Both the position numbers and the translations under genes were made by a program. 64,000 nucleotides of DNA from positions 5,142,390 through 5,206,389 of the forward strand of contig NC_092110.1 of assembly GCF_045679555.1 (NCBI RefSeq), in the 5' to 3' direction. This DNA is from Salvelinus alpinus (Eukaryota > Chordata > Actinopteri > Salmoniformes > Salmonidae). The notes beneath the pieces are model-generated. The model had not been told where the DNA came from, did no database searches, and saw only the letters and a program-made list of their open reading frames with translations. Positions 32,476 through 37,801 of the stretch are shown here, one piece after another. Each line of letters opens with the position of its first letter. Position 1 is the stretch's first letter.

Positions 32476-32982
32476 TGTCAGGTTTTGGCCAAGACTGTTG
32501 CCGGTTTTGGTCACTAGATGTCCCCATTGCACCTTTTTTGTACCTTTTGTTTTTCCTGCTCTAATTATTGTTTGCACCTGTAGGTCATTCCCTTGTTAGT
32601 ATTTAAACCCTGTGTGTTCCTCAGTTCCTTGCTCAGTGTTTGTAAGTTAGCACCCAGCCCCAGCCCAAGTCTTGTTTTATACAGATATTTCTCTTGTTGG
32701 ATTTTCCAGAGGTTCTCTGGTTTAGTTCTTGTGTATTATTTGAGTAGTCTTTTGAGGTTTGTTTTTCCCTGCTGTTTTTTGCCACTTTGTGGAGTTTCTT
32801 TTGTATTTTGGAGGATTTCCATTTTGTGCCTCTTGGCTTTATTTTTGGACATTGTGGATTTAGTTTCTTTGCCTGAAGATTTTGTTCTTTAATTAAACCA
32901 CCATCTCTAGTACTGCTGTGTCTGCCTCATCTTCTGGGTTCTGACGATTATTAGTGACTGTTTCTCGCACCGGGTCCTGACA
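32476..32982 (+). repeat. 5' LTR of element 2, with promoter
   Basis: Starts TGTCAGG and ends CCTGACA. TATTTAAA at 32600-32607 is about 31 bp upstream of GCTCAGTGTTT (32631-32641), the predicted RNA start. ATTAAA at 32892-32897 is a plausible poly(A) signal. Confidence 0.92.
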
Positions 32983-32983
32983 G

Positions 32984-32994
32984 AAACACTGAGC
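32984..32994 (+). promoter_or_regulatory. Self-priming primer-binding site of element 2
   Basis: AAACACTGAGC, one base after the LTR, is exactly complementary to 32631-32641 in the same LTR. The position and length (11 nt) are the same as in elements 1 and 3. Confidence 0.82.
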
Positions 32995-33001
32995 CATTAT
33001 A

Positions 33002-36900: not shown

Positions 36901-37284
36901 TCCCAGAGGTTCATCGGTCCCTTTAAGATTGCCAGGAGAGTCAATCCCGTTACTTTTCGCCTGCACTTACCCAGATCCCTTAAGATCAATCCAACATTTC
37001 ACATTTCTTTATTAAAACCTGTTGTTTTTTCTCCCCTTATCCCGGCAGGCAGACCTCCCCCTCCGCCCCGTGTCATCGGTGGCCAGTCGGCTTATACCGT
37101 CCACCGGATACTGGATTCCCGCCGGGTGCAGCGGTCCTGGCAGTATCTGGTGGACTGGGAAGGCTACGGTCCCGAGGAGCGCTCCTGGGTTCCTGCCAAG
37201 GACATACTGGACCCTGACCTCATTCGTCAGTTCAGGATCCTCCACCCTGAGAAGGCTGTTAGGAACGTCAGGAGCCGTTCCTAG
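33883..37284 (+). CDS. pol: Pol of element 2: PR-RT-RNaseH-INT-chromodomain
   Basis: Open frame of 1133 codons; translation would enter at the frameshift near 33946. Protease ALVDSGAAGNF (Asp 66). RT with KLDLRNAYHLVRI and YLDD (380-383). RNase H FMVEVDASEVGVGAVLSQR. Integrase zinc region (HPGVGRTLEF ... CSVCCQGK) and DD35E core D781, D841, E877. GPF motif (QRFIGPFKIARRVNP). Chromodomain from about 1069 (AYTVHRILDSRRVQ, YLVDWEGYGPEERSWVPAKD). No stop or frameshift seen. Confidence 0.95.
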   Translation: MLSILRQTGPFPLHVSRAPGKRTLPCRPGRTVTGNITSSHPSNSRLLIPVTLSWDDHEFSLQALVDSGAAGNFMDGVWAKENGVPSEPLSDPIRVTTLDRSPLGSGLVTRATSPLRLSVSQHQEVMNFHLISCSEFPLVLGYPWLHSHNPHIDWSVGTIKQWGPTCQATCIFPGSQSSPSESLESIDLSRVPECYHDLKLVFSKQRATKLPPHRPYDCPIDLFPGTCPPRGRIFSLSPPERAAMDTYIKDALAAGLMRPSTSPAGAGFFFVAKKDGGLRPCIDYRGLNAITVRNRYPLPLMATAFELLQEAVVFTKLDLRNAYHLVRIKPGDEWKTAFNTPTGHYEYSVMPFGLTNAPAVFQALINDVLRDMLNIFVFVYLDDILIFSSSLQEHTKHVRQVLKRLLDSHLYVKPEKCEFHSSRVQFLGFIVEPGRVQMDPKKVGAVADWPTPKSVKEVQRFLGFTNFYRKFIKNFSSVAAPLSAVTKGGNTRFLWGREAETAFQGLKQRILSAPILTLPTADEPFMVEVDASEVGVGAVLSQRGEDKKLHPCAFFSHRLTPAERNYDVGDRELLAVKMALKEWRHWLEGASQPFQVLTDHKNLEYIQQAKRLNSRQARWSLFFSRFQFILTYRPGSKNLKPDALSRIYSPAIREDTDMTVLPAAKIVAPISWQVEDSVKQAQAIEPGPGGGPANRLFVPKAARSQVLLWGHSSRLTCHPGVGRTLEFIQRKFWWPTIKEDVATFVKACSVCCQGKSSHLRPQGLLHPLSIPHRPWSHISLDFITGLPPSHGNTTILVIIDRFSKAARFVPLTKLPSAKETAELVINHVFRVFGIPQDMVSDRGPQFASRFWKAFCQLIGATASLSSGYHPESNGQTERMNQELETTLRCMVSNNPSTWSSFIVWAEYAHNTLCSSSTGISPHECQFGYAPLLFPDQEAEVRVPSASRFIRRCRLTWKKARLNLLRSSQQYQRQANRRRRPGPTLYPGQRVWLSTKNLPLRVESRKLSQRFIGPFKIARRVNPVTFRLHLPRSLKINPTFHISLLKPVVFSPLIPAGRPPPPPRVIGGQSAYTVHRILDSRRVQRSWQYLVDWEGYGPEERSWVPAKDILDPDLIRQFRILHPEKAVRNVRSRS
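33940..33946 (+). promoter_or_regulatory. -1 ribosomal frameshift heptamer GGGAAAC
   Basis: In the gag frame this reads CAG GGA AAC, so the heptamer has the correct phase (G GGA AAC) for a tandem -1 slip. It is the same heptamer known to drive frameshifting in mammalian PEG10, a gene derived from a sushi-type retrotransposon. A slip here enters the pol frame upstream of the protease. Confidence 0.82.
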
Positions 37285-37295
37285 GAGGGGGATTC
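37282..37295 (+). promoter_or_regulatory. Polypurine tract of element 2
   Basis: TAGGAGGGGGATTC ends at the 3' LTR. The same sequence precedes the 3' LTR of element 3. Confidence 0.82.
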
Positions 37296-37801
37296 TGTCA
37301 GGTTTTGGCCAAGACTGTTCGGGTTTTGGTCACTAGATGTCCCCATTGCACCTTTTTTGTACCTTTTGTTTTTCCTGCTCTAATTATTGTTTGCACCTGT
37401 AGGTCATTCCCTTGTTAGTATTTAAACCCTGTGTGTTCCTCAGTTCCTTGCTCAGTGTTTGTAAGTTAGCACCCAGCCCCAGCCCAAGTCTTGTTTTATA
37501 CAGATATTTCTCTTGTTGGATTTTCCAGAGGTTCTCTGGTTTAGTTCTTGTGTATTATTTGAGTAGTCTTTTGAGGTTTGTTTTTCCCTGCTGTTTTTTG
37601 CCACTTTGTGGAGTTTCTTTTGTATTTTGGAGGATTTCCATTTTGTGCCTCTTGGCTTTATTTTTGGACATTGTGGATTTAGTTTCTTTGCCTGAAGATT
37701 TTGTTCTTTAATTAAACCACCATCTCTAGTACTGCTGTGTCTGCCTCATCTTCTGGGTTCTGACGATTATTAGTGACTGTTTCTCGCACCGGGTCCTGAC
37801 A
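37296..37801 (+). repeat. 3' LTR of element 2
   Basis: 506 bp, same as the 5' LTR apart from the small difference described for the element. Confidence 0.93.

What the first reader, a model, noticed from the sequence alone, without database searches (positions are those of the whole stretch)
32476..37801. Apparently intact and recent Ty3/gypsy element
Nearly identical LTRs, exact 5-bp target repeat GTTCG, TATA box, self-priming site, frameshift heptamer, open gag, open pol with all catalytic residues, polypurine tract. No inactivating change was seen. It may be mobile now.
Basis: partly seen in the sequence, partly recalled or inferred. Interest (0 to 1): 0.8.

Follow-up and report, generated by a model that had tools for sequence, protein, structure and literature searches.

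The report
Young charr retrotransposon, two coding styles
This is an intact-looking, recently inserted "copy-and-paste" DNA element in what appears to be the Arctic charr genome, one of several hundred closely similar copies, and most of the copies found there have lost, through one extra base, the ribosome slip that such elements normally use to make their enzymes.

Summary
32476-37801 is a complete Tf1/sushi-type Ty3/gypsy chromovirus: LTRs of 507/506 nt (one mismatch, one gap), GTTCG target repeats, an 11-nt self-priming match, gag, pol in the -1 frame behind G GGA AAC, catalytic motifs, chromodomain, polypurine tract. At the conserved protein positions tested it carries no change private to itself. 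Present mobility is not shown. The copy is not special: the genome (probably Salvelinus alpinus, by a contig-length match) holds at least 679 copies of this gag-pol junction, and the window holds a second copy, B (45437-50634), and a different young element (4815-10161). The notable result is two subfamilies. 3A copies, like this one, keep GGGAAAC and need a -1 frameshift. 4A copies, like B, carry one extra A that puts gag and pol in one frame; 468 of the 679 places are 4A. Of 23 sampled 4A copies, 13 read as one open Gag-Pol frame, and variants shared among 4A copies show strong purifying selection on pol (93 synonymous, 29 non-synonymous). A fused-frame lineage has thus multiplied recently and appears to use its own enzymes. 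How it balances Gag against Pol is unknown and testable.

The parts
32471..32475 (.). 5-bp target-site repeat GTTCG, left
37802..37806 (.). 5-bp target-site repeat GTTCG, right
32476..32982 (+). copy A, 5' LTR (507 nt)
32600..32606 (+). TATA-like box TATTTAA
   Evidence: promoter function inferred
32631..32641 (+). self-primer segment, presumed 5' end of the RNA
   Evidence: pairs with the PBS in the predicted fold; start site not mapped
32984..32994 (+). primer-binding site complementary to 32631-32641
33002..33979 (+). gag, 325 aa
33887..33928 (+). CCHC zinc knuckle of gag
   Evidence: motif; coordinates computed by hand
33940..33946 (+). slippery heptamer G GGA AAC (3A state)
33952..34021 (+). 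candidate frameshift pseudoknot: stem 1 33952-33956/33967-33971, stem 2 33959-33964/34016-34021
   Evidence: found by inspection; arms checked and kept in 28 of 30 copies; nested fold alone z -1.5
33883..37284 (+). pol in the -1 frame (1133 aa from the first ATG)
34078..34089 (+). protease DSGA
   Evidence: coordinates computed by hand
34696..35175 (+). reverse transcriptase domain; YLDD at 35020-35031
   Evidence: coordinates computed by hand
35446..35760 (+). RNase H domain
   Evidence: coordinates computed by hand
35974..36150 (+). integrase zinc-binding domain (H2C2)
   Evidence: coordinates computed by hand
36196..36492 (+). integrase core, D-35-E present
   Evidence: coordinates computed by hand
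36841..37023 (+). SH3_Tf2-1 / GPF region of integrase
   Evidence: coordinates computed by hand
37093..37233 (+). chromodomain
   Evidence: coordinates computed by hand
37283..37292 (+). polypurine tract, overlapping the pol stop
37296..37801 (+). copy A, 3' LTR (506 nt)
45437..45878 (+). copy B, 5' LTR (442 nt)
46836..46843 (+). copy B junction GGGAAAAC (4A state): gag and pol in one frame
45898..50181 (+). copy B gag-pol in a single frame, interrupted by one in-frame stop (47362-47364) between protease and RT
50193..50634 (+). copy B, 3' LTR; 1 mismatch to its 5' LTR; GTGATG on both sides of the element

Best explanation
Copy A is a complete, recently inserted Tf1/sushi-group Ty3/gypsy chromovirus of a salmonid, almost certainly Salvelinus alpinus. 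Inferred life cycle: the LTR promoter makes an RNA starting near 32631; its 5' end folds back on the adjacent PBS and primes reverse transcription without a tRNA; most ribosomes end at the gag stop, and a fraction slip -1 at G GGA AAC to make Gag-Pol; particles form, cDNA is made, and the chromodomain integrase inserts it with a 5-bp repeat. Shown here: the sequence features, two young subfamilies with hundreds of copies between them, and purifying selection on what was passed on. In the larger (4A) subfamily an extra A at the slippery site fuses gag and pol, so a sushi-type element has multiplied as a single-ORF element. Its Gag must come from another route. The most likely, untested, is that the retained G GGA AAA still slips -1 into a frame that stops at codon 52, so that slipping now ends Pol instead of starting it; protein turnover, splicing or Gag supplied by 3A copies are the alternatives. 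Whether A or any copy moves today is not shown.
For: Anatomy. A and B share 4197 of 4313 aligned internal positions; the only indel is the slippery-site A. dN/dS of A versus B is 0.22 in gag and 0.14 in pol. Genome: 679 junctions with 0 for the reversed control, 468 of them exactly 4A. Of 30 sampled copies, 23 of 23 4A are nearer B and 7 of 7 3A nearer A in both gag and pol; each of three piecewise trees splits them cleanly (31, 32 and 31 leaves; support 0.85, 1.0, 0.98; one copy with too many gaps was left out of the first and one out of the third). Open single frame: 13 of 23 4A copies. 4A pol variants shared by copies: 93 synonymous, 29 non-synonymous, pN/pS 0.10, versus 0.42 for singletons; still 59/22 after dropping alleles also seen in 3A (P 3e-5). 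LTR pairs: 0-2 mismatches in the 21 of 23 4A copies with both LTRs complete, mean 1.24; nine 3A pairs, A included, mean 0.89.
Against: No RNA, protein, start-site or frameshift measurement. Only one genome was searched. All 23 fully sampled 4A copies lie on one contig, because the tool lists places in contig order. 10 of 23 4A copies and 5 of 7 3A copies are broken or truncated. Singletons are not neutral either (pN/pS 0.42), so the shared/singleton contrast is a soft baseline; the same contrast in 3A (8 copies) is not significant (P 0.13). Shared gag variants in 4A are weak evidence of constraint (10 synonymous, 14 non-synonymous; P 0.06 against neutrality), and 4A gag does not differ significantly from 3A gag (12/8; P 0.36). 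No tree with sushi-ichi or Tf1 reference sequences was built. The predicted nested fold after the slippery site is only marginally stable (z -1.5). The ages rest on assumed substitution rates.
Confidence: 0.82

Rival explanations
1. Copy A is intact only because it is young; the family is already silenced and no copy moves now.
For: 6 of 9 dated 3A LTR pairs, A included, carry 1-3 mismatches, so their insertions need not be of today; 18 of the 38 other LTRs inspected are already solo LTRs. No expression evidence exists here.
Against: 3 of 21 4A pairs differ by neither mismatch nor gap (5 of 21 by no mismatch) and 3 of 9 3A pairs by no mismatch, and open frames are common, as expected if activity is very recent.
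Confidence: 0.4
2. The 4A subfamily is not self-sufficient: it makes only Gag-Pol and is packaged in Gag supplied by 3A copies.
For: Loss of the ordinary Gag product is expected from a fused frame; 3A copies coexist; 4A shared gag variants have a higher pN/pS (0.46) than pol (0.10), P 0.0013.
Against: 3A gag gives pN/pS 0.22 and does not differ significantly from 4A gag (P 0.36), so gag may simply evolve faster. Among exact junctions 4A outnumbers all else about 2.2 to 1 and in the sample has more internal diversity (1.46% against 0.86%), odd for a dependant.
Confidence: 0.3
3. The extra A is a sequencing or assembly error in a short A run.
For: It is a one-base length difference in a homopolymer.
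Against: It occurs at 468 places and is tied without exception to the subfamily defined by gag and pol on both sides in 30 of 30 sampled copies. Of 12 further copies found by the A-type LTR, the 10 with a readable slip site are all AAA and A-like in gag.
Confidence: 0.03
4. The LTRs look young because of gene conversion, and the insertion is old.
For: Conversion between LTRs is known in general (recalled).
Against: Low LTR divergence is seen in every complete pair measured, on several contigs, and whole 3A copies differ little from one another (mean 0.86%, 8 copies).
Confidence: 0.05

Closest known systems
Tf1/sushi group of chromoviruses (sushi-ichi of Takifugu; vertebrate members)
   Same: Ty3/gypsy gene order, integrase with SH3_Tf2-1 and chromodomain, self-complementary PBS, -1 frameshift layout in 3A copies, LTR ends fitting the Sushi motifs TGTYANR...CNTNACA given in PMC3601003 (passages read; fit judged by eye).
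   Different: The 4A subfamily has no frameshift: gag and pol are one ORF. PMC10085805 (passages read) says members outside fission yeast predominantly use -1 frameshifting.
Tf1 and Tf2 of Schizosaccharomyces pombe
   Same: Self-priming, chromodomain, and for 4A the single Gag-Pol ORF (PMC10085805, passages).
   Different: Fish host; 4A is nested inside a frameshifting family and differs from its sister by one base at the junction; a CCHC knuckle is present in gag.
PEG10 (mammalian domesticated sushi-derived gene)
   Same: Slippery site G GGA AAC and a downstream pseudoknot (PMC4598141, passages); gag resembles the solved PEG10 capsid fragment 7lga, E 9.5e-10.
   Different: PEG10 is a host gene without LTRs or mobility (recalled); here it is a repetitive element family.
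Single-ORF elements with another Gag route (BARE1 of barley)
   Same: One ORF for Gag and Pol.
   Different: BARE1 makes Gag from a spliced RNA (PMC3735527, passages) and belongs to Ty1/copia; no splice test was made here.

Membership tests
Ty3/gypsy (Metaviridae) | LTRs, gag, and pol ordered PR-RT-RNase H-IN | tested here: met
Ty3/gypsy (Metaviridae) | short target-site duplication | tested here: met
   GTTCG for A; 5 bp in 16 and 6 bp in 2 of 18 solo LTRs
Chromovirus | chromodomain at the C terminus of integrase | tested here: met
   PF00385 E 1.6e-11; CBX/CDYL chromodomain chains in PDB
Tf1/sushi group | self-priming: PBS complementary to the 5' end of the element's own RNA | tested here: met
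   11-nt exact complement 31 nt after the start of the TATA-like box; 4 of 1000 shuffles. Sequence only: the RNA 5' end was not mapped.
Tf1/sushi group | position in an RT-IN tree with sushi-ichi and Tf1 | not tested
   Only homology searches; some hits bear source names such as Transposon Tf2-6 polyprotein.
Tf1/sushi group, vertebrate-type expression | -1 frameshift between gag and pol, copy A | tested here: met
   by sequence only; slipping not measured
Tf1/sushi group, vertebrate-type expression | -1 frameshift between gag and pol, 4A subfamily | tested here: not met
   gag and pol in one frame in B and at the junction of the 23 sampled 4A copies
Endogenous retrovirus | env gene | tested here: not met
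   the pol stop lies 11 nt before the 3' LTR, which leaves no room for env behind pol; no env family among the Pfam hits of the gag and pol pieces
Currently mobile element | new insertions or full-length RNA | not testable with these tools
   one genome, no transcriptome

The most novel reading that the evidence does not exclude
One base inserted into the slippery heptamer of a vertebrate Tf1/sushi element abolished its frameshift and turned it into a single-ORF element. Within roughly the last million years (assumed rates; the insertion itself is older, the subfamilies being 3% apart) this lineage out-multiplied its frameshifting sister in the same genome while keeping its polymerase under selection. 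It either inverted the recoding (ribosome slipping now ends Pol) or manages without a Gag excess.
Probability: 0.5. Interest if true: 0.65.

Novelty: new variant of a known kind. Interest (0 to 1): 0.5.

Why it matters
Retroelements are thought to depend on a set excess of Gag over Gag-Pol, often set by frameshifting. Here two sister subfamilies in one genome, 3% apart, differ exactly at that switch, and the one that lost it is the more numerous. This natural pair makes the question 'how much Gag excess does an LTR element need, and how else can it be had?' directly testable. For copy A itself, the value is as a marker of a recent retrotransposon burst in charr, useful for insertion-polymorphism studies.

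Tried and rejected
A private error in copy B: rejected when 468 genome places showed the same extra base. B's in-frame stop as founder of the 4A subfamily: rejected, since 13 of 23 4A copies are open. Relaxed gag in 4A: suggested, not supported against 3A gag (P 0.36). P0127 as a fused Gag-Pol: its gag part is a different one placed behind the RT, so it is no evidence. Gag homologs as a test of slip-site conservation: Gly-Asn after the knuckle in 24 of 108 (of 120 listed), many others Gly-Lys, so only the close relatives are informative. LTR pattern in viral contigs: 0 hits. Rfam and tRNA scans of the window: nothing. The translation was in a wrong frame and was ignored. Literature searches listed no paper that I recognised, from title and start of abstract, as describing a single-ORF sushi element in a vertebrate; beyond the listings I saw only passages of PMC4598141, PMC3601003, PMC10085805, PMC5009743, PMC3735527 and PMC12456120. 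Butler et al. 2001 was seen only as a cited reference.

Not done because the genome search stayed busy: exact count of 3A, search of A's left flank for an empty site. Copy number of element C was not asked for.

Full report
WHAT THE WINDOW SHOWS. The element at 32476-37801 is as described. Its LTRs are 507 and 506 nt with one mismatch and one gap, within 3 bases of each other near the LTR start, and GTTCG flanks it. The 11 bases AAACACTGAGC, one base after the 5' LTR, are the exact reverse complement of LTR positions 32631-32641, which start 31 nt after the start of TATTTAA; 4 of 1000 shuffled LTRs match as well. In the predicted fold of the presumed 5' leader this segment pairs with the PBS, though the fold as a whole is not unusual (z -1.36). 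gag (325 aa) and pol overlap, pol in the -1 frame, with G GGA AAC in gag phase. After a 5-nt spacer a 5-bp stem and a 6-bp second stem could make a pseudoknot; this was found by inspection (arms checked), and the nested fold of the region is weak (z -1.53).

PROTEINS. Pfam finds Retrotrans_gag/Ty3_capsid/DUF4939, RVP_2, RVT_1, two RNase H models, Integrase_H2C2, rve, SH3_Tf2-1 and Chromo. The closest solved sequences are Ty3 Gag-Pol for integrase and PEG10 for part of the capsid. Catalytic motifs are complete. A departs from columns conserved in at least 90% of 120 listed homologs at 1 of 53 (gag), 5 of 202 (RT/RNase H, 34600-35999) and 4 of 132 (integrase, from 36181); all ten departures are shared by at least 16 of the 29-31 other charr copies readable at that codon. 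The homologs were only the 120 listed of 249, 7820 and 2452. The named pol relatives nearest by identity are salmonid: Salvelinus alpinus 96% over 83% of the piece and Hucho hucho 92% over 76%.

HOST. The contig holding the S. alpinus protein is listed with 53,380,280 bases, exactly the length of G000:C19. I take the host as Arctic charr on that basis.

A SECOND COPY. The window holds copy B at 45437-50634, same strand, LTRs 442 nt with one mismatch, flanked by GTGATG. Internally A and B align over 4313 positions with 116 substitutions and a single indel: B has GGGAAAAC where A has GGGAAAC. In B, gag and pol are therefore in one frame; that frame has one premature stop between protease and RT. 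dN/dS between A and B is 0.22 in gag and 0.14 in pol.

TWO SUBFAMILIES. A genome scan of the junction with a free gap gave 679 places (335 plus 344; reversed-pattern control 0). The exact 4A form gave 468 (238 plus 230). The remaining 211 were not counted by type, because that search did not complete; in the visible part of the list they read GGGAAAC, except one GGGAAGAC. Counts need exact flanks and are lower bounds for the family. The first 30 places became loci (23 4A, all on contig C1; 7 3A, on C1 and C2). All 23 4A are closer to B and all 7 3A closer to A, in gag and in 900 nt of pol. Trees of gag, front pol and back pol each separate the two sets (supports 0.85, 1.0, 0.98). Mean divergence is 1.46% within 4A (24 with B), 0.86% within 3A (8 with A) and 2.98% between. 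Twenty-four further gag copies, 12 found through the A-type LTR and 12 picked from the 3A list, are all closer to A; 22 have a readable slip site, all AAA, which for the 12 picked is by choice.

POLARITY. Close gag homologs end gag a few residues after a Gly-Asn that fits G GGA AAC (24 of 108 with a readable tail), as A does, so the 3A state is most simply ancestral. This is inferred from proteins, not DNA.

ARE THE 4A COPIES FUNCTIONAL? Read directly, 13 of 23 4A copies and 2 of 7 3A copies have their frames open throughout. By alignment, 12 of 23 and 2 of 7 have no stop, no frameshifting indel and no truncation. Variants found in two or more 4A copies are 93 synonymous and 29 non-synonymous in pol (pN/pS 0.10; P 2e-33 against the share of synonymous sites), against 60 and 78 for singletons (0.42). 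Dropping alleles also seen in 3A leaves 59 and 22 (P 3e-5 against singletons). In 3A, with 8 copies, the contrast points the same way but is not significant (13/6 against 47/54; P 0.13). For gag the shared counts are 10 and 14 in 4A (P 0.06 against neutrality) and 12 and 8 in 3A (32 copies), not different (P 0.36). So pol, and less surely gag, has been kept working while 4A spread.

AGE. LTR pairs: A 1 mismatch in 505; five further 3A pairs 1, 1, 3, 1 and 0 (a sixth pairing there, 2 mismatches, is the rearranged C3 locus and was not counted) and three more 0, 0 and 1 (which reached 5 of the 7 sampled 3A copies, two of them with incomplete LTRs); 21 of 23 4A copies have both LTRs complete, with 0-2 mismatches, mean 1.24. 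With assumed neutral rates of 2e-9 to 1e-8 per site and year (recalled, from no call) A is about 0.1-0.5 million years old (95% limits 0.003-2.8), 4A insertions about 0.14-0.7 and 3A about 0.09-0.44 on average. Of 38 other LTRs inspected, from the 40 scored of 1533 first-look candidates, 18 are solo, 12 are 5' and 8 are 3' LTRs. All 38 differ from A at one LTR position, and A has 6 private coding substitutions among 32 copies, so it is a slightly divergent member of the 3A group.

MECHANISM. For 3A: ordinary sushi-type self-primed replication with a -1 frameshift (inferred from sequence). For 4A: the default product is Gag-Pol. GGGAAAA is itself of the X XXY YYZ form, and in 24 of 24 4A copies a -1 slip would stop at codon 52 and a +1 slip at codon 12, so either could give a Gag-like product. 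This conservation is weak evidence, because the copies are young. Alternatives are protein turnover, splicing as in BARE1 (PMC3735527, passages) or Gag from 3A copies.

LIMITS. No second genome, no RNA, no empty-site test; the 4A full-length sample is from one contig; no reference tree.

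Noticed in passing
4815-10161: Third young element, a different sushi-like family: LTRs 538 nt identical (0 mismatches), TSD AAAGA, 11-nt self-priming match (LTR 5053), gag ORF 5283-6290 and pol ORF 6221-9502 both open, pol in the -1 frame by their coordinates; SH3_Tf2-1 found but no Chromo match.
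   Followed up: partly
25805-29278: Another Ty3/gypsy-like pol between 407-nt direct repeats (6 mismatches), with a 234-bp tandem duplication in the RT region at 26695-27164.
   Followed up: no
L047-L050 (G000:C3, about 27,148,300-27,157,000): A 3A copy whose 3' LTR is cut at about 75 nt is followed directly by an exact copy of its 1126-nt upstream flank plus a solo LTR (2 mismatches) with its own target repeat: either a full-length and a solo-LTR allele joined in the assembly, or a tandem duplication.
   Followed up: partly
60575-60946 and 62718-63089: Direct repeat pair, 5 mismatches in 372; its end reads like a tRNA-derived SINE head (name recalled).
   Followed up: no
56271-56607: 24-bp minisatellite, 14 copies.
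   Followed up: no
L057, L071, L073, L076: 4A copies with long (about 497-507 nt) 5' LTRs instead of 424-449, perhaps from exchange between subfamilies by template switching.
   Followed up: no
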